Shown one piece after another: positions 24,988-35,148 of a stretch of 46,941 bases of DNA. Each line of letters begins with the position of its first letter. The first letter of the stretch is position 1. Source of the DNA: Bacteroidota bacterium (GTDB lineage Bacteria > Bacteroidota > Bacteroidia > Chitinophagales > Chitinophagaceae); assembly GCA_030706635.1 (NCBI GenBank), contig JAUZOD010000031.1:1-46941 (forward strand). The letters run 5' to 3'. Below the pieces are notes generated by a model that made no database searches, had not been told where the DNA came from, and saw only the letters and a program-made list of their open reading frames with translations. Both the position numbers and the translations under genes were made by a program.

Positions 24988-25013
24988 AATAAAAGTATTT
25001 ATATACTTTTATT
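24988..25013. promoter_or_regulatory. perfect 11-bp inverted repeat, probable ric operator
   Basis: AATAAAAGTAT, spacer TTAT, ATACTTTTATT. It ends 5 bp before the TAACTTTG -7 element, so a bound dimer would cover the -33 to -15 region and block transcription. The A/T-rich dyad with a 4-bp spacer resembles operators of NsrR/IscR-type Rrf2 regulators. A Rrf2 gene closes the same operon (28431-28862). The operator role is inferred. Confidence 0.65.
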
Positions 25014-25018
25014 AGACA

Positions 25019-25026
25019 TAACTTTG
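25019..25026 (+). promoter_or_regulatory. -7 promoter element (TAACTTTG) of the ric operon
   Basis: Exact TAnnTTTG match, 4 nt before the ATG at 25031. The expected start of transcription would fall at or next to that ATG, implying a leaderless or near-leaderless message, unless translation starts at the second ATG (25052). Confidence 0.55.
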
Positions 25027-25030
25027 CAGC

Positions 25031-26014
25031 ATGAATATTAAATCTTCTGATATGGAAACAGTCACAGAAAATATATTGAACGTAACCTTGCTGCCCCCCA
25101 GGCAGAAGCATCCCGCTATTTTTGCCCGTTTTGATTTATTGCGGGAAGGGGAAAGCCTGACCCTGCACAACGATCATGATCCCAAACCCCTGTATTATCA
25201 GCTATTGGGAGAAAGAGGTGACATATTCACCTGGGAATACCTGGAACAGGGTCCCGAATGCTGGAAAGTGCAGATTGGTAAAAGGATTACCGGGGCGAAT
25301 GGGGAAACCCTCGGACAAATCGCCGCGAAAGATCTGCGCAAAGCGGAGGTATTTAAGAAATATGGACTTGATTTTTGCTGCGGGGGTAAAAAAACCGTTC
25401 GGGAAGCTTGTAAAGAGAAAGGGATTGATGCAACCCGCGTGGAAGAGGAACTGCAGCATCCGGAAAATCTGGAATCTGCCGACAGGAATTCCTACAATGA
25501 ATGGAGCCTTGGTTTCCTCGCGGATTTCATCGTCAACAACCACCATAATTACATCCGCAAAAATCTGCCGGAACTTCGGGGTTATGCCGAAAAATGTGCC
25601 CGGGTTCACGGAGCCCATCATCCGGAATTGCTGTCGATCAAACAACTCGTAGAGCAAGTCAACGATGAGCTGCTGGATCATCTTGAACATGAAGAAAGAA
25701 TTTTATTTCCCTACATAAAATCATTGGAGCATGCCGACCCAAATCGGGCCACGGCAAAAACCACAGGCGCGCAAAAATTAAAAGACCTCATCGACAATCT
25801 GGAAAAAGAGCATGCTTTTATCGGGGAGGCTTTTGACAGGATCAGGCAACTGAGCAGGAACTATCAGGTTCCAGAAGATGGATGCGGCAGTTACCGGTTA
25901 TTATTTAAAATGCTGCCGGACTTTGAAGAAGATCTTCACCAGCATATTCACCTGGAAAATAATATCCTCTTTCCCAAGGCAATCGAACGGGAATCGAACG
26001 ATCATGCTGATTGA
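25031..26014 (+). CDS. ric: iron-sulfur cluster repair di-iron protein RIC (ScdA/YtfE) with N-terminal DUF2249 domain
   Basis: A 327-residue three-domain protein. Residues about 12-85 are DUF2249 (KHPAIFARFDLLREGESL, NDHDPKPL, YLEQGPECWKV). Residues about 88-142 are the ScdA_N domain with the DFCCGG motif at residues 114-119. The rest is a hemerythrin-like di-iron domain with ligand candidates NNHHNYI, GAHHPEL, DHLEHEERILFP, EHAFIGE and HIHLENNILFP. RIC proteins repair Fe-S clusters damaged by NO or peroxide and are cytoplasmic. The added DUF2249 domain matches the neighbouring protein, which has two more. ATG 25031 gives an ATG 4 nt from the promoter; ATG 25052 (METVTEN) is the alternative. 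The downstream gene overlaps by 11 bp. Confidence 0.93.
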   Translation: MNIKSSDMETVTENILNVTLLPPRQKHPAIFARFDLLREGESLTLHNDHDPKPLYYQLLGERGDIFTWEYLEQGPECWKVQIGKRITGANGETLGQIAAKDLRKAEVFKKYGLDFCCGGKKTVREACKEKGIDATRVEEELQHPENLESADRNSYNEWSLGFLADFIVNNHHNYIRKNLPELRGYAEKCARVHGAHHPELLSIKQLVEQVNDELLDHLEHEERILFPYIKSLEHADPNRATAKTTGAQKLKDLIDNLEKEHAFIGEAFDRIRQLSRNYQVPEDGCGSYRLLFKMLPDFEEDLHQHIHLENNILFPKAIERESNDHAD

Positions 26015-26819
26015 CGAACAAACAAAAATTGCCGTGTTACTCAGGCATCATCCCGATGCTCTGGAAACCATCATCAGGCTAAGCCCGAATTTTAAGAAAT
26101 TGCGAAATCCCGTACTGCGCAAACTGATGGCCGGCCGTACGAGTATTGCCATGGCCGCTAAAATCGGTGGCTGCCATCCGGAAGATTTTTTTAAAAAGCT
26201 TGAACCGCTTGGCTTTGAAGTAAACCTCCAAACCGCGGTGGCGGAAGAAACGCCGGGGGATACCAAACCCATTCCTGTTTTCTTAAAGGAGCTTAAAGAA
26301 GAGGAACTGGTTCCCCTGGACGTCCGCCCCATGCTGGCAGAAGGAAAAGATCCGTTAAAGCAAATCCAGCAGGAGATCAGGAACTTAAAGAACGGGCAGG
26401 TATTGAAGATCATCAACAGTTTTGAACCAACGCCGCTTTTGAAACTGCTGGAAAATCAGGGCTTTCAATCTTATGTGGATGCCAGGGGAGAGAATTGGGT
26501 GGAGACTTACTTTTATAAATCATCCCTGGCAAAAACTCCTGTCCTGGAAGTGGAGGCAACTTCTTCGGCGGGTTGGGATCAGTCGCTAAAAAGGTTCCGG
26601 GATAAATTACAAGCTATTGATGTCCGCCATCTGGAAATGCCCCAACCCATGATGACCATTCTCGAGGCATTGGGGAGATTGCCGCATGATCATGCATTAT
26701 TTGTACATCATAAGCGGATTCCTGTTTTTCTGCTGACGGAATTGAAGGAGCGAAACTTTGACTACCGCATCCGGGAGACCGGGGAGGGAGAAGTGTCTTT
26801 GCTTATTTTTCATAATTAA
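26004..26819 (+). CDS. DUF1858-DUF2249-DUF2249 domain protein
   Basis: A 271-residue soluble protein. Residues about 1-75 are DUF1858 (TKIAVLLRHHPDALETI, NPVLRKLMAGRTSIAMAA). Residues about 100-170 and 185-271 are two DUF2249 modules (VPLDVRPMLAEGKDPLKQI; DVRHLEMPQPMMTILEAL). DUF2249 modules recur in RIC, hemerythrin and nitrogen-oxide-response proteins and probably act as docking or small-ligand domains; no catalytic residues stand out. ATG 26004 is chosen because it restores the domain start and couples to ric by an 11-bp overlap; the longer frame reading inside ric is not supported. It probably works with RIC and the membrane protein in NO or Fe-S stress. Confidence 0.82.
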   Translation: MLIDEQTKIAVLLRHHPDALETIIRLSPNFKKLRNPVLRKLMAGRTSIAMAAKIGGCHPEDFFKKLEPLGFEVNLQTAVAEETPGDTKPIPVFLKELKEEELVPLDVRPMLAEGKDPLKQIQQEIRNLKNGQVLKIINSFEPTPLLKLLENQGFQSYVDARGENWVETYFYKSSLAKTPVLEVEATSSAGWDQSLKRFRDKLQAIDVRHLEMPQPMMTILEALGRLPHDHALFVHHKRIPVFLLTELKERNFDYRIRETGEGEVSLLIFHN

Positions 26820-26820
26820 A

Positions 26821-28107
26821 ATGATTAACGCTCCATCAAATACAGGTCTGCAGCAAACTACATCTTATAAGGTGGTCCTCCCCTTTTATATCTATGCAGC
26901 CATTTCATTTCTAACAGCCTGCATTTTGTTACTGCTGAATACACGTGCCATGCATCAGCATTATTTTCTTCCACAAACCCTCGCAATAACCCATATCATG
27001 GCATTGGGATGGGGAACTATGATTATCCTGGGGGCCAGTCATCAGTTGTTGCCAGCGATGATTGATGGAAAATTAAGCAGCAATACGATGGCTTATTTGT
27101 CGTTCGGATTTGCTGCCGTTGGAATTCCAATACTGGCAACAGGATTTTATTTATTTCAAACCGGATGGCTGCTTCAGGCTGGCGCATTACTCGTTAACGC
27201 CGCGATGGTTTGTTACCTGGTGAATGTAGTCAGCAGTATTTATGAAACCAAAAAAACGGATGTACATGCCGTTTTCATTGCCACCGCCGCACTGTGGTTA
27301 TTTGCGACGACATTTTTTGGACTATTATTAGTATTTAATTTTACCCGGGCATGGCTGCCGCGCAATTCCGTTGACTATTTGTCCCTGCATGCGCATATGG
27401 GCATCACCGGGTGGTTTCTATTGCTTGTACTGGGCGTGGCCTCCCGGTTGATTCCCATGTTCCTGATCTCCAAATACAGCAGCCGGAAAAGACTGTGGTG
27501 GATTTATGCACTGATCAACCTGGGTCTGTTGGTTTTTATTTTATTAAAACTTTTTGTAAAGCCTGGTCTTGTCTTCTATGTTCCGGTTTTGCTCATCGGC
27601 GCTGCCTTAGCCGGCTTTGCTGACTATTGCCGCCGCGCATACAAGGTCCGCCTCAGAAAGCAAGTGGATGAGCAGTTAACATTATCCCTTTTGTCCGTCG
27701 CGTTATTGCTTTTACCCGTCCTCTGTTTGCTCGTGACCATGGCCTTCATGAGTAAAAATCAGCAGGCGCATATCGTGGTCTTGTACGGGTTTTGTATTTT
27801 TTTCGGATGGATTACGGCCATGATATTGGGAATGACCTTTAAAACGCTGCCCTTTATCGTGTGGAACAAAGTTTACCACGACAGGGCGGCCAAAGGAAAA
27901 ACGCCGGCGCCAAAGGAATTATTCAGCGAAAAACTATTTCGCCAGATGAAGGTTTTTTACCTATCGGGATTTGGACTTTTTATTACTGGCCTTGTTTTCC
28001 TGAATGATATATTACTCATTTCCGGTGCTGCAGCATTGGTGCTGGCGGCCTTATCTTACGCAGGCAATGTCGCCCGGATCATTCTCCATAAGCCGGTATC
28101 TCTATGA
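26821..28107 (+). CDS. polytopic membrane protein, NnrS/heme-copper-oxidase subunit I-like
   Basis: A 428-residue protein with about 12 predicted helices. Conserved-looking His residues lie in membrane segments: LAITHIMALGWGTMIILGASHQLLP (H58, H74) and SLHAHMGITGWFLLLVLG (H190, H192). The pattern recalls NnrS-type and cytochrome oxidase/NO reductase subunit I-like haem proteins. Catalytic Cu-ligand sets of true oxidases are not evident, so a haem-binding NO-protective or NO-sensing role is inference. ATG 26821 follows the previous stop by 1 bp and gives the expected N-terminus; its last 4 bp overlap the next gene (ATGA). Confidence 0.75.
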   Translation: MINAPSNTGLQQTTSYKVVLPFYIYAAISFLTACILLLLNTRAMHQHYFLPQTLAITHIMALGWGTMIILGASHQLLPAMIDGKLSSNTMAYLSFGFAAVGIPILATGFYLFQTGWLLQAGALLVNAAMVCYLVNVVSSIYETKKTDVHAVFIATAALWLFATTFFGLLLVFNFTRAWLPRNSVDYLSLHAHMGITGWFLLLVLGVASRLIPMFLISKYSSRKRLWWIYALINLGLLVFILLKLFVKPGLVFYVPVLLIGAALAGFADYCRRAYKVRLRKQVDEQLTLSLLSVALLLLPVLCLLVTMAFMSKNQQAHIVVLYGFCIFFGWITAMILGMTFKTLPFIVWNKVYHDRAAKGKTPAPKELFSEKLFRQMKVFYLSGFGLFITGLVFLNDILLISGAAALVLAALSYAGNVARIILHKPVSL

Positions 28108-28427
28108 AAGTAATAACCAATGACCAGATCAATTGCGACAAAGCGTTGGGTCCTCTCTATCAGGTGTATGATCCGGAGATCGGTTTGAATGTGGTTGACC
28201 TGGGGTTGATCTATCAGATCGATTTTTTGGATGACGAAAATGGCGTGGAGGCAACGATGACCCTGACAACCCAATTCTGCCCGATGGGCGAATCCATAAG
28301 GAATAATGTAGCCCGGTCTTTATCCAATACTTTTGCAGGCTTCCGGATAACCGTGAACCTGGTATTCAACCCGCCGTGGAATGCGGCCCGGATTTCGGAA
28401 AGGGGAAGACAATTCTTGAATCGGTAA
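28104..28427 (+). CDS. DUF59/MIP18 family metal-sulfur cluster assembly factor (ric operon copy)
   Basis: A 107-residue DUF59 protein: YDPEIGLNVVDLGLIY, then TLTTQFCPMGESI with the conserved Cys, then VNLVFNPPWNAARISERGR. Family members (PaaD, SufT, MIP18) help mature Fe-S proteins. It overlaps the membrane-protein gene by 4 bp and precedes the Rrf2 gene by 3 bp. A paralogue sits at the end of the suf operon (34326), so each operon carries one. A role in rebuilding clusters after RIC-mediated iron release fits the context but is inferred. Confidence 0.9.
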   Translation: MKVITNDQINCDKALGPLYQVYDPEIGLNVVDLGLIYQIDFLDDENGVEATMTLTTQFCPMGESIRNNVARSLSNTFAGFRITVNLVFNPPWNAARISERGRQFLNR

Positions 28428-28430
28428 ACT

Positions 28431-28862
28431 ATGTTAAGTTCAACCTGTAAAACAGCCATCAAAGCGGTCATTTACCTCGCCGCTGCCAGCGAGACCGGCG
28501 AAAAAGTGGGTATACGGGAGGTTGCCCGGAATATTCGTGCCAGCGAACATACCGTAGGAAAAATATTGCAGCTCCTTGCCCGGAGGGGACTGATTAACAG
28601 CAACAAGGGCCCTTCCGGAGGGTTTTCGATCAGCCGCTTACAGTTTAACCGGCCGATTATCCACATCATAGAAGCCATTGAAGGTGAGCAGGTATTCAGG
28701 GAATGCGGGTTGGGACTGAGTAAATGCTCGGCCGCCCACCCCTGCCCCATTCACCATGAGTATAAAATGGCCCGGGAAAGGATAGCGAAATTGTTCAGGG
28801 AAAATACGCTGAAAACCCTGTGTGACCCCGTTTCCAGTGGATTCGCCTATCTGATCGGATGA
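28431..28862 (+). CDS. Rrf2 family transcriptional regulator (ric operon)
   Basis: A 143-residue winged-helix regulator. Residues about 1-65 are the DNA-binding domain (STCKTAIKAVIYLAA, SEHTVGKILQLLARRGLI, GPSGGFSISR). Cysteines 92, 99 and 105 (ECGLGLSKCSAAHPCP) match the three Fe-S ligands of NsrR and IscR. It is the last gene of the ric operon and lies directly before the suf promoter, so it probably controls one or both operons, sensing NO or Fe-S status. Likely targets are the palindromes at 24988-25013 and 28881-28900. Confidence 0.9.
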   Translation: MLSSTCKTAIKAVIYLAAASETGEKVGIREVARNIRASEHTVGKILQLLARRGLINSNKGPSGGFSISRLQFNRPIIHIIEAIEGEQVFRECGLGLSKCSAAHPCPIHHEYKMARERIAKLFRENTLKTLCDPVSSGFAYLIG

Positions 28863-28880
28863 CTTAAAGAAAAATTTCTG

Positions 28881-28900
28881 TTTATACTTTTTAGTATAAA
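28881..28900. promoter_or_regulatory. perfect 8-bp inverted repeat, probable suf operator
   Basis: TTTATACT, spacer TTTT, AGTATAAA. It ends 8 bp before the TAAATTTG -7 element, the same position as the ric palindrome. The half-sites use the same ATACTTTT word as the ric operator, although the arms are in the opposite relative order, so it is not certain that one protein reads both. Confidence 0.6.
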
Positions 28901-28908
28901 TAGATTCG

Positions 28909-28916
28909 TAAATTTG
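28909..28916 (+). promoter_or_regulatory. -7 promoter element (TAAATTTG) of the suf operon
   Basis: Exact TAnnTTTG match with 4 nt (TACC) before the sufB ATG, the same spacing as at ric. This implies a leaderless or near-leaderless sufB message. Confidence 0.55.
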
Positions 28917-28920
28917 TACC

Positions 28921-30402
28921 ATGAAGACAGAATTATACCCATCTAAAAGAAATGATGCTGAGGATGAGTTGCGTACGATCGAAGAAACCGTTTTCAGCGA
29001 TTATAAATATGGGTTTGTCACAGATATAGAAGCAGATGAGGCGCCGCGGGGTCTGAATGAGGAAGTTATCCGGTTCATCTCTGCCAAAAAGAAGGAGCCC
29101 GAATGGATGCTCGAATGGAGATTAAAGGCCTATAGTTACTGGCTGACTATGAAAGAGCCCGGCTGGGCTAATGTCAAATACCCGAGGATCGATTATCAGG
29201 ATATTATCTACTATTCCGCCCCCAAACAAAAAATTAATCCCAAAAACCTGGATGAAATTGATCCTGAACTGAGGAAAACCTTTGAAAAACTGGGCATTTC
29301 ACTGGATGAGCAAAAAAGACTGAGCGGTGTTGCCGTAGATGCGGTGATTGACAGTGTTTCGATTGGTACTTCTTTTAAAGGCCAGTTGGCTGAGCTCGGC
29401 ATAATCTTCTGCTCTATGAGTGAGGCTATCCGGGAACACCCGGATCTGGTTAAAGAGCATCTAAGTTCAGTGGTACCCATTACCGACAATTATTTTGCGG
29501 CTTTGAATGCGGCCGTCTTCAGCGACGGCTCGTTCTGTTATATACCCAAAGGGGTAAGGTGCCCGATGGAACTTTCCACCTATTTCCGGATCAACGCCGA
29601 AAATACCGGGCAGTTTGAAAGAACACTGATCATTGCGGAAGCCGGAAGTTATGTGAGTTACCTGGAAGGTTGTACGGCGCCCATGCGGGATGAGAATCAG
29701 TTGCATGCAGCTGTTGTTGAACTGATTGCCATGGAAAATGCTGAAATTAAGTATTCCACTGTCCAAAACTGGTATCCGGGAGATAAAAAGGGTGTCGGCG
29801 GGGTTTATAATTTCGTCACCAAACGCGGTATTTGTAAGGGAGATCATGCCAAAATATCCTGGACCCAGGTTGAAACGGGTTCAGCCATAACCTGGAAATA
29901 TCCCAGCGTCATCCTGAAGGGCGACTATTCAACCGGAGAATTTTATTCCGTGGCCGTGACAAATAATTATCAACAGGCAGATACGGGCACCAAAATGATG
30001 CATCTTGGAAAAAACACCAAGAGCCGGATCGTTTCGAAAGGGATATCAGCAGGCTTCAGCAACAACAGTTACCGCGGTTTGGTGCACGTAGGCAAGAACG
30101 CCAGGAATGCCAGGAACTTCTCCCAGTGTGATTCACTTTTACTGGGCGATAAATGCGGTGCGCACACCTTTCCCTACATTGAAGTGAGAAATAACTCGGC
30201 CGTTGTTGAACATGAAGCCACCACATCCAAGATCGGGGAAGACCAGATTTTTTATTGCAACCAGCGTGGTATCCCCACGGAAACAGCGGTTGCCCTGATC
30301 ATCAATGGTTTTGCCAAAGAGGTTATGAACCACCTGCCGATGGAATTTGCCATCGAGGCGCAAAAGCTGCTGGCGATCAGCCTCGAGGGAAGCGTGGGGT
30401 AA
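28921..30402 (+). CDS. sufB: Fe-S cluster scaffold subunit SufB
   Basis: The 493-residue SufB scaffold of the SufBCD complex, on which clusters are assembled in the cytoplasm. Diagnostic segments are [75 protein letters not shown] and [21 protein letters not shown] with the late conserved Cys. The length is normal (480-495). It is the first gene of the suf operon, 58 bp after the Rrf2 gene. The only ATG near the promoter is at 28921; no ribosome-binding site is seen. Confidence 0.98.
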
Positions 30403-30407
30403 AGGCA

Positions 30408-30493
30408 GATGTGAAAATGTGGAAATATGTAAATGTGCTAGTGAGAGACCTGTATTTCATTTTCACATTTCCACATTAGCACATTTTCACATT
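30408..30493. repeat. mirrored octamer-period ACATT repeat between sufB and sufC
   Basis: The left arm (30408-30440) reads GTGAAAAT-GTGGAAAT-ATGTAAAT-GTGCT. The right arm (30459-30493) reads its near-reverse complement ACATTTCC-ACATTAGC-ACATTTTC-ACATT. The period is 8 nt in both, and about 18 nt separate them. The RNA would fold into a long imperfect hairpin inside the suf mRNA. A related short copy occurs at 481-503. Confidence 0.7.
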
Positions 30494-30523
30494 ATTTTAG
30501 TAATCAAATAATAGCACACGAAT

Positions 30524-31288
30524 ATGTTGTCGATTCAGGATTTGCACGCGGGAATTGAAGGAAAGAAAATTTTAAACGGAATCAACCTGGATATCAAACC
30601 CGGTGAAGTTCACGCGATCATGGGACCCAACGGCTCGGGCAAAAGTACGCTGGCCAATGTGCTGGCAGGCAGAACGGATTATGAAGTCAGTCGCGGCACC
30701 GTGGAGTTCCTTGGAAAGGACCTGCTGGATCTTGCTCCCGAAAAGAGAGCCGGAGAAGGTTTGTTCCTTGCCTTTCAGTATCCGGTTGAAATCCCGGGAC
30801 TCAATACCATCAATTTCATTAAAACGGCCGTAAATGAAGTGAGGAAATACCGCGGCCTGGAACCGCTCGACGCCGTGTCTTTTCTGAAACTGATGAAGGA
30901 GAAAATGGCCCTGATGAATATTGAACAATCTTTACTGAGCCGCTCCCTGAATGAGGGGTTTTCCGGTGGCGAAAAGAAACGCAATGAGGTCTTTCAGATG
31001 GCCATGCTGGAGCCGAAACTGGCGATACTGGATGAAACAGATTCCGGACTTGATATTGACGCCATCCGCATCGTTTCCAACGGGGTGAATAAATTACGAA
31101 ACAAGGACAACGCCGTTCTGGTGGTGACCCATTATCAGCGTCTGCTGGACTATATCGTTCCGGATTTTGTGCATGTGCTCTATAACGGCCGGATTGTAAA
31201 ATCGGGTACAAAAGAACTGGCGCTTGAACTGGAAGAAAGAGGATATGATTTTATCAAAAATGAGACCAGCGCGGTTGAGGCTGTTTAA
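30524..31288 (+). CDS. sufC: Fe-S assembly ATPase SufC
   Basis: A 254-residue ABC-type ATPase of the SufBCD complex. Walker A is GPNGSGKST, the Q-loop region is FQYPVEIPG, the SufC-style signature is LNEGFSGGEKKRNEV, Walker B is LAILDETDSGLD, and the H-loop is VVTHYQRLL. All catalytic residues are intact. It is preceded by the 121-bp gap containing the mirrored octamer repeat, and sufD starts 31 bp after it. Confidence 0.98.
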   Translation: MLSIQDLHAGIEGKKILNGINLDIKPGEVHAIMGPNGSGKSTLANVLAGRTDYEVSRGTVEFLGKDLLDLAPEKRAGEGLFLAFQYPVEIPGLNTINFIKTAVNEVRKYRGLEPLDAVSFLKLMKEKMALMNIEQSLLSRSLNEGFSGGEKKRNEVFQMAMLEPKLAILDETDSGLDIDAIRIVSNGVNKLRNKDNAVLVVTHYQRLLDYIVPDFVHVLYNGRIVKSGTKELALELEERGYDFIKNETSAVEAV

Positions 31289-31319
31289 TTTCCGTAAGGG
31301 GAATCCATAAAAAAAATGA

Positions 31320-32630
31320 ATGAACTCCATAGAGTATTTTAAAGAACGCTTTGAACAATGGCAGCCGGACGCCGGCCATAACGGTTTTGGCGCCATCCGC
31401 CAGGAAGCTTTTAATGCTTTCAGTAAACTGGGCATCCCCACTTCCAAAAACGAAGAATGGAAATATACCCGTGTTGCCGGCTTATTTAATAAGGACTATC
31501 AATTTACACCTGATCCCCAGCCTGCTTCCGTTACAGCGGCAGACGTGAACCGTTTGCGCCTACCCGGATATGAAGAGGCCAATGAACTGGTATTTGTGAA
31601 TGGGTTCTTTTCTTTTGCTCTTTCTGTGATCCGTTCATCAGACCTGACCGTGCTGGCTTTGGAGGAAGCTGCGAAAAATGATTTCAGGGAACTGGTGGCG
31701 AAACAGTTCGGAGATAGCAATAAATACATTAAAGACGGTATTCATGCCCTGAACACCGCATTTGTTCACGGAGGCGTGTTCGTTCACATAAAAAAGGACC
31801 AGGTTTTAGAACATCCCGTCTACGTTTATAATATCACAGACGCCCGCTCGGCCAATATCCTGGCCCAGCCCCGCAGTCTCATTCATATCAATGAAAATGC
31901 GCAGGTGCAACTGGTGGAAACCTATATTACCCTGGGCGCCAATCAAAGTTTCACCAACCAGGTTATGGAAGTGACTGTTGAAAAAGATGCACGGCTGGAA
32001 TATTACAAAATTCAAAACGACGGAGACCATACAAACCAGGTCAGCACCACACATATCCGGCAAACCGGCAAAAGTAATGTGCACACGGTCACCGTTTCTC
32101 TAAACGGAGGGCTGGTCAGAAACAATCTGAACCTGATACTCGATGCCAAATTCTGCGAGGCGCATTTGTATGGACTGTATTTCCAAACCGGGAATAGTCA
32201 TATTGACAATCATACCATCGTTGACAATATCAAGCCGAATTGCCTAAGCAATGAATTGTACAAGGGGATCATGAGCGATCAGTCCACCGGAGTGTTCAAC
32301 GGAAAAATATTTGTCAGGCCCCAGGCGCAAAAAACAAATGCTTACCAGTCGAATAAAAACGTATTGCTCTCCGATACCACGAGTGTAAATGCCAAACCCC
32401 AGCTTGAAATATTTGCTGATGATGTAAAATGTACGCACGGATGTACCGTTGGCAAATTGAATGAAGAGGGTCTGTTTTATCTGCAGTCCAGGGGCATCCC
32501 GGAAAAAACAGCCCGCACTTTATTGTTGCGCGCCTATTCGGCAGATATCCTGGAGCACATCAAACCCGCCCCCATACGATCCTATGTTGAACGGCTGATT
32601 TTTGAACGTCTGGAATCGGATATATCATGA
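31320..32630 (+). CDS. sufD: Fe-S cluster assembly protein SufD
   Basis: The 436-residue SufB paralogue that partners SufB and SufC. The N-terminal GIPTSKNEEWKYTRV is typical. The beta-helix core carries NENAQVQLVETYITLG, HIDNHTIVDN, FNGKIFVRPQAQKTNAYQSNKN and ADDVKCTHGCTVGKL with the conserved HG/Cys motif near the SufB-SufD interface, then the helical end FYLQSRGIPEKTARTLLLRA. It begins at the second ATG of an ATGAATGA stretch, and its last 4 bp overlap sufS. Confidence 0.97.
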   Translation: MNSIEYFKERFEQWQPDAGHNGFGAIRQEAFNAFSKLGIPTSKNEEWKYTRVAGLFNKDYQFTPDPQPASVTAADVNRLRLPGYEEANELVFVNGFFSFALSVIRSSDLTVLALEEAAKNDFRELVAKQFGDSNKYIKDGIHALNTAFVHGGVFVHIKKDQVLEHPVYVYNITDARSANILAQPRSLIHINENAQVQLVETYITLGANQSFTNQVMEVTVEKDARLEYYKIQNDGDHTNQVSTTHIRQTGKSNVHTVTVSLNGGLVRNNLNLILDAKFCEAHLYGLYFQTGNSHIDNHTIVDNIKPNCLSNELYKGIMSDQSTGVFNGKIFVRPQAQKTNAYQSNKNVLLSDTTSVNAKPQLEIFADDVKCTHGCTVGKLNEEGLFYLQSRGIPEKTARTLLLRAYSADILEHIKPAPIRSYVERLIFERLESDIS

Positions 32631-33877
32631 TGCCATCTTCCACCATACAGAAAGCCCAAACGCTGGATGTCATAGCAATCCGCAAACAGTTTCCGGTATT
32701 GAACCGGGAAGTTAAAGGCAGGCCACTGGTTTATCTGGACAATGCCGCCACATCACAGAAGCCACAGGCCGTGATTGATGCGCTGCTGGATTATTATACG
32801 AACTACAACGCCAATATTCACCGGGGAATTCATACGCTGGCAGAAGAAGCCACGGCTGCTTTTGAAGAGACCCGTGATGCCGTTCAGCGCTTTATTCATG
32901 CTCCGGCCAGGGAAGAGATCATTTTTACCCGCGGCACAACAGAAAGTATAAACCTGGTCGCCTATACCTGGGGCAGAAAGAACATAAAGTCAGGTGACGA
33001 GATCATTATTTCCACCCTGGAGCATCATTCCAATATTGTTCCCTGGCAAATTCTGTGTGAGGAGAAAAATGCCATACTGAAAATAATTCCCATCAACGAT
33101 AACGGGGAATTAATGATGGATGAATATAAACAGCTGTTGGGACCTAAAACCAAACTGGTTTCCATCGCCCATGCTTCCAATGCCCTGGGCAGCATTAACC
33201 CGGTGAAGCAGATCATTGAATGGGCGCACGCCGCAGGGTCCCTGGTTTTGGTGGATGGCGCTCAATCTACAGTCCATCTCGATATTGACGTGCAGGATAT
33301 GGATTGTGATTTTTTTGCTTTTTCTGCGCATAAATTATATGGTCCTACGGGTACCGGCATTTTGTATGGCAAAAAACATATCCTCGAGGACATGCCTGTT
33401 TTTCTCGGTGGCGGGGAAATGATCAAAGAAGTAACATTTGCCAAAACCACATACAACGACCTGCCCTATAAATTCGAAGCGGGAACGCCGAATATAGCAG
33501 ATGTAATTGCCTTCAAAACAGCCCTGCAATTCATTGAGGATGTTGGAAAAGAAAAAATCAGGAAACATGAACAGGATCTCCTGGTATATGCTACGGCCCA
33601 ATTGGAACAGATACCGGGATTAAGGATTATAGGCAGGGCCAAAGAAAAAGTGAGTCTGATATCTTTTGTGATTGACAAAGCACATCCGCAGGATATCGGG
33701 ATATTGTTGGACAACCGCGGGATTGCGGTAAGAACAGGTCATCACTGCGCTGAGCCCCTGATGAAATGTTACCATATTCCAGGTACCATCCGCGCTTCTT
33801 TTGCCGTCTATAATACCCGGGAAGAAGTGGATGAGCTGACTGGCGGCTTGCGGAAAGCGATAAAAATGTTATCCTGA
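32627..33877 (+). CDS. sufS: cysteine desulfurase SufS
   Basis: A 416-residue class V aminotransferase-fold enzyme using PLP, which takes sulfur from cysteine and leaves alanine. The PLP Lys is K236 in FSAHKLYGPTG, and the persulfide Cys is C374 in VRTGHHCAEPLM, typical of the SufS/CsdA (type II) group. NIHRGIHTLAEEAT near the N-terminus also fits. It overlaps sufD by 4 bp and passes sulfur to SufE, encoded 3 bp downstream. Confidence 0.98.
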   Translation: MMPSSTIQKAQTLDVIAIRKQFPVLNREVKGRPLVYLDNAATSQKPQAVIDALLDYYTNYNANIHRGIHTLAEEATAAFEETRDAVQRFIHAPAREEIIFTRGTTESINLVAYTWGRKNIKSGDEIIISTLEHHSNIVPWQILCEEKNAILKIIPINDNGELMMDEYKQLLGPKTKLVSIAHASNALGSINPVKQIIEWAHAAGSLVLVDGAQSTVHLDIDVQDMDCDFFAFSAHKLYGPTGTGILYGKKHILEDMPVFLGGGEMIKEVTFAKTTYNDLPYKFEAGTPNIADVIAFKTALQFIEDVGKEKIRKHEQDLLVYATAQLEQIPGLRIIGRAKEKVSLISFVIDKAHPQDIGILLDNRGIAVRTGHHCAEPLMKCYHIPGTIRASFAVYNTREEVDELTGGLRKAIKMLS

Positions 33878-33880
33878 GGA

Positions 33881-34360
33881 ATGAGTGAAGAAAAAACCAT
33901 AGCAGCAACAGAGAAAGAAATAGTGGAGGAGTTTTCGTTGTTTGATTCCTGGGATGATAAATATGAATACATTATCGATCTGGGAAAAAAGCTTCCTCCC
34001 CTGGAAGACCGGTTTAAGATAAATGAAAACAAAGTAAAGGGATGCCAGTCAACCGTATGGCTGGCTTCCGATTTCAGGGAAGGGAAAGTGTTTTTTAAAG
34101 CAGATAGTGATGCCATGATCGTAAAAGGGCTGATCAGTATGCTAATCAGGGTATTGTCGGGACACACGCCCGATGAAATTCTGAGCGACAAACTGGATTT
34201 CATCAGGGAAATCGGGATGACCACGCATTTGGCGCAAACCCGCTCGAACGGCCTGCTGTCCATGGTAAAACAAATGAAGCATTTTGCCTTGGCCTATAAA
34301 ATAAAAAATGGTTCAATAACAGAATATGAGCACGGAAGAACTGAAAACAAAAGTAATTGA
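33881..34360 (+). CDS. sufE: SufE sulfur-acceptor protein
   Basis: A 159-residue protein that accepts persulfide from SufS and stimulates it. The active Cys is C55 in NKVKGCQSTVWL; YIIDLGKKLPPLED and LDFIREIGMTTHLAQTRSNGL are diagnostic. It is 20-25 residues longer than enteric SufE because of short N- and C-terminal tails. Its 3' end overlaps the next gene by 35 bp in another frame, which indicates coupling. Confidence 0.97.
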   Translation: MSEEKTIAATEKEIVEEFSLFDSWDDKYEYIIDLGKKLPPLEDRFKINENKVKGCQSTVWLASDFREGKVFFKADSDAMIVKGLISMLIRVLSGHTPDEILSDKLDFIREIGMTTHLAQTRSNGLLSMVKQMKHFALAYKIKNGSITEYEHGRTENKSN

Positions 34361-34637
34361 CTGTCTGCACACCATCTATGACCCGGAGATACCGGTGAAT
34401 ATCTACGAAATGGGCCTGGTGTACGAAGTGAATGTATTGCCCATCAACAATGTGCAGATTGTTATGACCCTTACCGCACCGAGTTGCCCTGCCGCGCAAT
34501 CCTTACCTGTGGAAGTGGATCAGAAGGTCCGTTTGATTGAAGGGGTTAATGACGTGCATGTATCGGTTACCTGGACGCCGCCCTGGGATAGAAGTATGAT
34601 GTCTGAAACGGCCCAGCTGGAATTGGGTATGCTGTGA
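34326..34637 (+). CDS. sufT: DUF59/SufT family Fe-S assembly factor (suf operon copy)
   Basis: A 103-residue DUF59 protein: YDPEIPVNIYEMGLVYEV, MTLTAPSCPAAQSLP with the conserved Cys, and VSVTWTPPWDRSMMSETAQLELGML. Such proteins are found in suf operons of many bacteria as maturation factors for demanding Fe-S enzymes. It starts inside sufE (35-bp overlap) and precedes the second Rrf2 gene by 25 bp. It is a paralogue of the copy at 28104. Confidence 0.93.
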   Translation: MSTEELKTKVIDCLHTIYDPEIPVNIYEMGLVYEVNVLPINNVQIVMTLTAPSCPAAQSLPVEVDQKVRLIEGVNDVHVSVTWTPPWDRSMMSETAQLELGML

Positions 34638-34662
34638 TCATGTATTCACAATAATTGATCGA

Positions 34663-35148
34663 ATGAAAATAACGGCACAGGAAGAATTTGGATTACGCAT
34701 TCTGATCCGCATCGCCGGATGCCAGACCGAGGAAGGTATGAGCATTCCGCAATTGAGTAAAACGGAAGGATTGAGCAGTCATTATGTGGCGAAACTTACG
34801 CGCACTCTCCGGATGGCGGGCTTTATCAATAGTACCCCGGGATATAAAGGCGGATATGTGCTGGCAAAGCCGGCCAGGGAGATTCGCATCCGGGAAGTGC
34901 TGAAGGCTTTAGGCGGTGTGCTGTATGACCAGGACTTCTGCGGTCTCCACGCAGGAGGTCTGAATCTATGCACCAATTCCGTTGACTGTTCCGCACGCTC
35001 TCTCTGGAAAATGATTCAGTTTACGGTTGATCAGTTGCTCGATAAGATCACCCTTCACGATATGGCCAATACGGAAAAGGAATCCACCAGATTCCTGCGA
35101 GAGATCCTGGAGCAAAGGATTGAAGTGCCGGAAGAAAAAACCGTATAA
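34663..35148 (+). CDS. Rrf2 family transcriptional regulator (suf operon)
   Basis: A 161-residue winged-helix regulator of the Rrf2 type (AQEEFGLRILIRIA, LSSHYVAKLTRTLRMAGFI, GYKGGYVLAKP). Cysteines 93, 103 and 109 (DFCGLHAGGLNLCTNSVDC) could bind a cluster; the first spacing is 9 residues, against 6 in the paralogue at 28431, so the sites differ. As the last gene of the suf operon it most likely senses Fe-S sufficiency and represses suf, like IscR or SufR. Its tail carries about 20 extra charged residues. Confidence 0.9.
   Translation: MKITAQEEFGLRILIRIAGCQTEEGMSIPQLSKTEGLSSHYVAKLTRTLRMAGFINSTPGYKGGYVLAKPAREIRIREVLKALGGVLYDQDFCGLHAGGLNLCTNSVDCSARSLWKMIQFTVDQLLDKITLHDMANTEKESTRFLREILEQRIEVPEEKTV

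What the first reader, a model, noticed from the sequence alone, without database searches (positions are those of the whole stretch)
25031..35148. Mirrored Fe-S modules: a ric repair operon and a suf assembly operon, each with its own DUF59 factor and Rrf2 regulator
Two adjacent operons on the same strand each end with a DUF59 protein and a three-Cys Rrf2 protein (28104/28431 and 34326/34663). Gene spacing is tight throughout (overlaps of 11, 4, 4 and 35 bp; gaps of 1 to 3 bp). The symmetry suggests the locus has two sensors with different cluster chemistry: Cys spacing is 6 and 5 residues in the first regulator and 9 and 5 in the second. Repair and synthesis would then be tuned separately but cross-talk at the shared middle promoter. 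Family functions are known; the two-sensor division of labour is inference.
Basis: partly seen in the sequence, partly recalled or inferred. Interest (0 to 1): 0.72.

Follow-up and report, generated by a model that had tools for sequence, protein, structure and literature searches.

The report
Two self-regulated iron-sulfur repair/assembly operons
Two neighbouring bacterial gene sets, one that repairs and one that builds iron-sulfur clusters, each appear to carry their own switch protein and their own matching DNA control site, so they are probably controlled separately; the gene families are known, but these control sites seem undescribed.

Summary
"Tight throughout" is wrong: a hairpin repeat sits in a 121-bp sufB-sufC gap. 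New here: each operon has its own palindrome at its promoter, AATAAAAGTA-N6-TACTTTTATT before ric (24988-25013) and TTTATAC-N6-GTATAAA before sufB (28881-28900). In the 4.6-Mb genome the first occurs once even with 3 mismatches allowed, the second once without mismatch. In the family the suf palindrome goes with RrfB (25 of 25 operons with it, 1 of 29 complete ones without). The ric palindrome precedes the ric module in 68 of 69 named Bacteroidota loci with enough upstream DNA. Separate control is therefore well supported, as inference; cross-talk at the middle promoter is not. The modules are adjacent in only 2 of 8 family genomes found with both, in opposite orders. Likely picture: two self-repressed cassettes, RrfA an NsrR-like (probably NO) sensor, RrfB a RisR-like sensor of Fe-S supply. 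Binding, signals and read-through are untested.

The parts
24988..25013 (+). RIC operator, AATAAAAGTA-N6-TACTTTTATT, 11-bp perfect arms
   Evidence: only site in the genome at up to 3 mismatches
25019..25026 (+). TAACTTTG, Bacteroidota -7 promoter element (consensus TAnnTTTG recalled)
   Evidence: read; in 71 of 82 distinct ric-type sites a TAnnTTTG lies within 40 nt downstream, 1 of 82 in shuffles
25031..26014 (+). ric (DUF2249 + ScdA_N + hemerythrin), Fe-S repair di-iron protein
   Evidence: TIGR03652 240.8 bits over cut-off 204.7
26004..26819 (+). DUF1858 + DUF2249 (two stretches) protein, domain order as in DrpB of Thermus
   Evidence: PMC6282519 passages
26821..28107 (+). membrane protein of the haem-copper oxidase subunit I / NnrS kind
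   Evidence: window protein alone: no Pfam family; among 45 aligned homologues COX1 in 24 (best 2e-9) and NnrS in 4 (best 1.3e-4); His58, His190, His192 invariant in the 45
28104..28427 (+). DUF59 protein of the ric module
   Evidence: PF01883 43.2 bits
28431..28862 (+). RrfA, Rrf2 regulator, CX6CX5C-P-x-H
   Evidence: PF02082 81 bits
28881..28900 (+). SUF operator, TTTATAC-N6-GTATAAA
   Evidence: only perfect site in the genome
28909..28916 (+). TAAATTTG, -7 promoter element of sufB; ATG follows 4 nt later (near-leaderless)
   Evidence: read; 26 of 30 suf sites have TAnnTTTG within 40 nt, 0 of 30 in shuffles
28921..30402 (+). sufB
   Evidence: NF008773 903 bits over cut-off 717
30409..30492 (+). 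dispersed hairpin repeat inside the sufB-sufC gap
   Evidence: z -5.2; 66 match rows in own genome, both strands, the place itself included
30524..31288 (+). sufC
   Evidence: TIGR01978 359.5 bits over cut-off 212.8
31320..32630 (+). sufD
   Evidence: PF01458 278.6 bits, and position
32627..33877 (+). sufS
   Evidence: TIGR01979 591 bits over cut-off 475
33881..34360 (+). sufE
   Evidence: PF02657 159.4 bits
34326..34637 (+). sufT-like DUF59 protein
   Evidence: PF01883 62.3 bits; TIGR02945 138.2 of cut-off 143.4
34663..35148 (+). RrfB, Rrf2 regulator, CX9CX5C
   Evidence: PF02082 94.2 bits

Best explanation
These are two separately controlled, self-regulated cassettes that sit end to end. RrfA, last gene of the ric module, binds the AATAAAAGTA-N6-TACTTTTATT dyad at the ric promoter. 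RrfB, last gene of the suf operon, binds the TTTATAC-N6-GTATAAA dyad at the sufB promoter. Each most likely represses its own operon while its Fe-S cluster is intact; damage or loss of the cluster releases the promoter, and because the regulator is in its own operon the response limits itself. RrfA probably reads nitrosative damage (it stands with ric, an NnrS-like gene and a DrpB-like DUF2249 protein). RrfB probably reads Fe-S supply, as RisR does. Shown by sequence: genes, palindromes, their place at the promoter, their association with the regulators in relatives, one strong site each in this genome. Inferred: which protein binds, repression, the signals, and possible read-through of the ric transcript into suf (58-bp gap, no terminator-like match there on the coding strand).
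For: Own genome: one RIC site at up to 3 mismatches, one perfect SUF site. Family: suf operator within 3 of 16 mismatches in 25 of 25 operons with RrfB, in 1 of 29 complete operons without it, in 4 of 6 cut by a contig end; RIC site at 0-1 mismatch before all 12 of the 12 full ric operons with a close RrfA. Phylum: 63 of 80 named loci hold RIC, DUF2249, membrane, DUF59 and RrfA; of the 69 with at least 3 kb upstream of the membrane gene, 68 have the RIC site at up to 3 of 18 mismatches in the 5 kb before it; of 11 with less, 4; taking the best of five shuffles for each, 5 of 80. 91 RIC-type hits at up to 2 mismatches in 3.65 Mb of fetched loci (some fetched twice) against 2 for the reversed pattern. 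RrfB ends the suf operon in 20 of 20 distant loci read, out of 51 genomes outside the family with RrfB (55 of 395 searched). The sampled ric-type RrfA and the RrfB proteins are each one clade, support 100/99. RrfA-like paralogues differ in the presumed recognition helix (A37-S38-E-H-T41-V-G43 against S-P-x-H-F-x-A) and go with ATAAAAGA(C/T) half-sites. The genome carries nosZ on C155, with a second ric-like match, below the cut-off, on that contig. M. xanthus RisR has Cys92/102/108, the RrfB spacing, and its holo form represses suf (PMC9973013, passages and section 6).
Against: No binding or expression data. The motifs were read off the family promoters before being counted there, so 25 of 25 and 12 of 12 are partly circular; the operons without RrfB and the named loci are the freer tests, and at least 8 of the 80 named loci seem, by equal contig length, to be contigs of the family set. 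In distant relatives the suf operator drifts to forms such as ATCTTGAC-N6-GTATAGAT: 18 of 20 exceed 3 mismatches, one of them because the contig has no upstream DNA. RrfB lacks the first Cys in 3 of 25. RrfA is far below the NsrR cut-off (28.6 of 182 bits). Of 24 DUF2249-membrane-DUF59 modules read in the family, 12 have no close RrfA, and one distant module stands behind a Crp-type gene (L291), so the module can live under other regulators. The RrfA paralogues are not one clade in the tree, which warns of long branches.
Confidence: 0.72

Rival explanations
1. One reading: RrfA also acts at the middle (sufB) promoter, so repair and synthesis are coupled by two regulators on one promoter.
For: The two modules are next to each other; the left arm and T-rich spacer of the suf operator resemble one RIC half-site (2 of 9 mismatches in the window).
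Against: The full RIC dyad is missing there (6 of 18 mismatches). Half-site likeness is no better in the 8 suf promoters of genomes with a found RrfA operon (1-2 mismatches) than in the 17 without one (1-2 mismatches). In G076 the order is reversed and each module has its own operator at 1 mismatch.
Confidence: 0.12
2. Coupling by read-through: the ric transcript runs on into suf in this genome, so a signal that opens ric also raises suf, while suf alone stays under RrfB.
For: 58-bp gap, same strand, no terminator-like match between 28862 and 28921 on the coding strand.
Against: Bound RrfB may block passage. Of the other 7 family genomes found with both modules only one has them adjacent, in the reverse order. 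The terminator scan found no more than shuffles (12 against a mean of 13.0), so it says little.
Confidence: 0.4
3. The two modules are functionally one unit that selection has kept together.
For: Adjacency in two orders (window, G076); suf-RrfB, a Crp-type gene, then a DUF2249-membrane-DUF59 set in L291; a SufA-type suf operon 3.7 kb from ric on the other strand in L246.
Against: Adjacent in only 2 of 8 family genomes found with both; sufB lies within the fetched flanks (up to 10 kb, often cut by contig ends) in 1 of 80 named loci.
Confidence: 0.1
4. The Rrf2 proteins are activators or thiol switches without an Fe-S cluster.
For: Rrf2 proteins do other jobs too: passages of PMC9973013 name CymR (cysteine metabolism) and SifR (quinone sensor) (that these need no cluster is recalled). 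RrfB's nearest solved relatives include CymR. Thermus NsrR also activates (PMC5748679 passages).
Against: In the window the palindromes end 5 and 8 bp upstream of the -7 element, where a repressor would sit; Cys92, 99, 105 and His108 are invariant in the 89 ric-type and 42 paralogous RrfA proteins compared (the two locus sets overlap, so some are the same gene).
Confidence: 0.15

Closest known systems
RisR of Myxococcus xanthus (Rrf2, IS6 group)
   Same: CX9CX5C spacing as RrfB; holo form represses the suf and isc operons (PMC9973013, passages and section 6)
   Different: RisR site has a GAC-N7-GTC core, RrfB's predicted site is TAC-N6-GTA in the family; RisR also governs isc; no direct sequence comparison of the two was made here
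NsrR (NO-sensing Rrf2 repressor)
   Same: controls ric/ytfE in several proteobacteria (PMC1274295, PMC9268430 passages); RrfA sits with ric and an NnrS-like gene
   Different: RrfA 28.6 of 182 bits for the NCBIfam NsrR model; operator differs from gATGyAT-N5-ATrCATc (PMC1274295) and from CTTGACCNNGGTCATGG of Thermus NsrR (PMC5748679); residue 8 is mostly Thr, where S. coelicolor NsrR uses Asp8 as ligand (PMC9338935 passages)
IscR
   Same: three Cys plus a following His (recalled for E. coli IscR: Cys92, 98, 104, His107), like RrfA Cys92, 99, 105, His108
   Different: IscR model scores 43.7 (RrfA) and 63.2 (RrfB) of 207.55 bits
DrpA/DrpB of Thermus thermophilus
   Same: DUF2249 proteins in nitrate respiration; DrpB has DUF1858 + two DUF2249 like the window's second gene (PMC6282519 passages)
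   Different: no ric, DUF59 or Rrf2 neighbour is mentioned in the passages seen

Membership tests
RIC/YtfE/ScdA Fe-S repair protein (25031-26014) | ScdA_N + hemerythrin domains, score above TIGR03652 cut-off | tested here: met
   240.8 bits over 204.7; domains
RIC/YtfE/ScdA Fe-S repair protein (25031-26014) | repairs damaged Fe-S clusters | not testable with these tools
   biochemistry needed
SUF operon | sufB, C, D, S, E present and above a curated cut-off | tested here: met
   (sufD as SufBD core)
SufT (TIGR02945 SUF_assoc) | score above cut-off 143.4 | tested here: not met
   34326-34637 scores 138.2, just under; 28104-28427 scores 77.6; hence 'sufT-like'
NsrR (RrfA) | NCBIfam NsrR model above cut-off | tested here: not met
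   28.6 of 182 bits
NsrR (RrfA) | N-terminal Asp8 as fourth ligand (S. coelicolor) | tested here: not met
   Thr8 in the window; Thr in 82% of 89 ric-type proteins
NsrR (RrfA) | NO releases DNA binding | not testable with these tools
   needs purified protein
RisR/IS6 (RrfB) | CX9CX5C | tested here: met
   met in the window and in 22 of 25 family members; first Cys missing in L048, L025, L038
RisR/IS6 (RrfB) | place inside the IS6 clade | not tested
   no RisR sequence was at hand; tree holds no IS6 reference
RisR/IS6 (RrfB) | GAC-N7-GTC operator | tested here: not met
   window and family: TAC-N6-GTA; some distant relatives show forms with TTGAC in the left arm
IscR | NCBIfam IscR model above cut-off | tested here: not met
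   43.7 and 63.2 of 207.55 bits

The most novel reading that the evidence does not exclude
Bacteroidota have their own pair of Rrf2 circuits: an NsrR-like sensor (RrfA) with a widespread AATAAAAGTA-N6-TACTTTTATT site at the ric module, and a suf-specific sensor (RrfB). RrfA duplicates have been kept from interfering by a joint change of recognition helix (S38 to P, T41 to F, G43 to A) and half-site (GTA to GAC/GAT); the window's genome holds both kinds. Whole self-repressed cassettes are exchanged between strains, and where ric lands in front of suf, read-through makes a damage-repair-then-rebuild relay.
Probability: 0.4. Interest if true: 0.65.

Novelty: new variant of a known kind. Interest (0 to 1): 0.5.

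Why it matters
How Bacteroidota control Fe-S assembly, and what stands in for NsrR there, was not found in the open papers searched (passages and listings only). The operators turn both questions into simple binding and reporter tests, and they give a way to read the regulon from sequence in many genomes. The RrfA paralogues with matching operator changes are a natural case for how duplicated regulators become insulated.

Tried and rejected
Cross-talk at the middle promoter: looked for the RIC dyad there; not found beyond a half-site likeness shared by suf promoters of genomes without a found RrfA operon. A larger regulon in this genome: the scans gave one site each; the C120 place that matched AGTAT-N4-ATACT lies before a gene that looks unrelated by eye and fails the full pattern. 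Structure of the membrane protein: prediction never ran because the machine was busy, so only sequence evidence is given. Naming RrfA as NsrR and RrfB as RisR: not done, tests not met or not possible. Solved-structure search with the membrane protein: nothing of note (one hit at E 0.11; none with the profile). Sigma-70 and terminator scans: no more than shuffles. Foreign base composition: GC of the locus 0.465 against 0.461 for the rest of the window, no sign.
Full report
Observation. The window holds, on one strand, ric (25031-26014), a DUF1858/DUF2249 protein, a membrane protein, a DUF59 protein and an Rrf2 regulator (RrfA, ends 28862), then sufB, sufC, sufD, sufS, sufE, a sufT-like DUF59 protein and a second Rrf2 (RrfB, ends 35148). 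The claim of tight spacing throughout fails at sufB-sufC: 121 bp that hold a strong hairpin (-34.7 kcal/mol, z -5.2), a member of a dispersed repeat with 66 match rows, both strands counted, in this genome. The genome has 4 Rrf2 and 4 DUF59 matches, two of each here.

The membrane protein has no Pfam family by itself, but 24 of 45 aligned homologues match COX1 (best 2e-9) and 4 match NnrS (best 1.3e-4). I take it as NnrS-like, that is of the haem-copper oxidase subunit I kind. The second gene has the domain order of DrpB from nitrate-respiring Thermus (PMC6282519, passages). The genome has nosZ on C155 (938.8 bits over 625), and a second ric-like match, below the cut-off (180.2 bits), lies on the same contig.

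Operators. Upstream of ric lies AATAAAAGTA-N6-TACTTTTATT (24988-25013), upstream of sufB TTTATAC-N6-GTATAAA (28881-28900). They end 5 and 8 bp before a TAnnTTTG element that is almost at the start codon (the -7 consensus is recalled). Across loci, TAnnTTTG follows within 40 nt in 71 of 82 distinct ric-type sites and 26 of 30 suf sites, against 1 of 82 and 0 of 30 in single letter-shuffles. In the whole genome the RIC pattern occurs once at up to 3 mismatches (reversed pattern 0) and the suf pattern once without mismatch, with 43 places at up to 2 mismatches against 47 for the reversed pattern.

Family survey. Among 117 genomes of the family, sufB was found in 60 (E up to 1e-100) and ric in 76 (60 over the cut-off). 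I read 59 suf neighbourhoods (all but the own one, which is in the window) and 80 of the ric places, best-scoring first, leaving out the window's ric and G076's C346 place, which other sequence already held. In these loci 25 genomes including the own have suf+RrfB, 12 have the full ric operon with a close RrfA, 8 have both and 2 have them side by side: window ric-suf, G076 suf-ric. Suf operons without RrfB often carry a gene of about 109 aa upstream of sufB; the two such genes scanned are PF01521, SufA-like (L064; L246, a named locus). The suf operator (up to 3 of 16 mismatches) is in 25 of 25 operons with RrfB, 1 of 29 complete operons without it, and 4 of 6 cut by a contig end. The RIC site at 0-1 mismatch precedes 12 of 12 full ric operons with a close RrfA. 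The one same-genus genome (G035) has no RrfB match at E 1e-20; its SufB is only 74.7% like the window's (rank 38 of 59; SufC rank 56 of 59, SufS 49 of 52), and its one ric match stands without the DUF2249-membrane-DUF59 genes (L096; the module was not sought elsewhere in that genome). The suf-RrfB unit therefore seems to have been swapped or lost within the genus; this is inference.

Phylum survey. A profile of the membrane protein found 497 relatives in the named genome contigs; the best 80 were read. 63 of 80 hold RIC, DUF2249, membrane, DUF59 and RrfA together; 13 lack RIC in reach, 3 lack RrfA, 1 has DUF2249 and membrane gene only. Of 69 with at least 3 kb upstream of the membrane gene, 68 have the RIC operator at up to 3 of 18 mismatches within 5 kb before it; of 11 with less, 4; by the best of five shuffles, 5 of 80. 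At least 8 of these contigs seem, by equal length, to be contigs of the family set. One of the 80 has sufB in its flanks, 3.7 kb from ric and on the other strand (L246). RrfB was found in 55 of 395 genomes of the phylum, 51 of them outside the family. RrfB ends the suf operon 20 of 20 times, but the operator there drifts, and only 2 of 20 keep 3 mismatches or fewer (one of the 18 has no upstream DNA). One of these, L291, has suf-RrfB followed by a Crp-type gene and a DUF2249-membrane-DUF59 set.

Regulators. RrfA keeps Cys92, 99, 105 and His108 in the 89 ric-type and 42 paralogous proteins compared, some of them the same gene fetched twice. RrfB keeps Cys103 and Cys109 in 25 of 25 but lacks the first Cys in 3; Glu7 and Glu8 are invariant there. 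In a tree of 77 rows (25 ric-type and 25 paralogous RrfA, 25 RrfB, 2 others; the RrfA rows sampled at random apart from the own ones) the ric-type and the RrfB rows are each one clade with support 100/99; the paralogues are not one clade, and the program warns of long branches. Nearest solved chains are 6y45/6hsd, deposited as Rrf2 family regulators, for the RrfA profile (single-sequence search: NsrR 5n07 at E 5e-4) and 4cic, CymR and IscR for RrfB. RisR has the RrfB spacing and its holo form represses suf (PMC9973013, passages and section 6). RrfA paralogues differ at positions 38, 41 and 43, in what I take from the winged-helix fold as the recognition helix, and go with ATAAAAGA(C/T) half-sites: 12 of 21 such hits lie 12-135 bp before an RrfA-like gene. 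The window's genome has such a paralogue on C89, with a 3-mismatch site upstream and a CcoN-related gene behind it, read only in part.

Reading. Each cassette most likely represses itself through its own operator; the signals are inferred from neighbours and from RisR and NsrR. The middle promoter shows only the suf operator. Its likeness to one RIC half-site is no better in genomes with (8) than without (17) a found RrfA operon, so cross-talk is not supported. Read-through from ric into suf is open: 58 bp, no terminator-like match on that strand.

Literature. Searches returned no paper; 40, 53, 54 (20 of 32 listed), 87 and 102 returned papers. Of eight I read passages (PMC1274295, PMC3534657, PMC5748679, PMC6264515, PMC6282519, PMC9268430, PMC9338935, PMC9973013, the last with one section); of the others I saw listings only. 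None of what I saw describes these operators or an Rrf2 gene of a Bacteroidota suf or ric operon; PMC6264515 and PMC3534657 report Rrf2 genes beside nos clusters. The library is open-access only.

Noticed in passing
window 30403-30523: The sufB-sufC gap holds an 84-bp hairpin that belongs to a dispersed repeat (66 match rows in the genome, both strands counted). It splits an otherwise tight operon.
   Followed up: partly
L002 (own genome C89:28987-29373, minus strand): A paralogue of RrfA with an R2-like site (3 mismatches) upstream and a CcoN-related protein with a long N-terminal extension behind it.
   Followed up: partly
L001 (own genome C1:24672-25070): Another Rrf2 protein with CX11CX4C spacing, between a dapB-like gene and groEL by eye; not of either type.
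   Followed up: no
L041 12626-13222 and similar loci: A bacilliredoxin (BrxA/BrxB family, TIGR04191, scanned in L041) sits between sufT and rrfB; genes of like size stand there in several other suf operons, none in the window.
   Followed up: partly
L291 11786-15271: suf-RrfB followed by a Crp-type gene and a DUF2249-membrane-DUF59 set: the ric-type module beside another regulator.
   Followed up: partly
ric loci such as L093 and L162: Ric genes stand beside gene sets that look like nos clusters by size and order; nosZ was confirmed by search only for the own genome's C155.
   Followed up: partly
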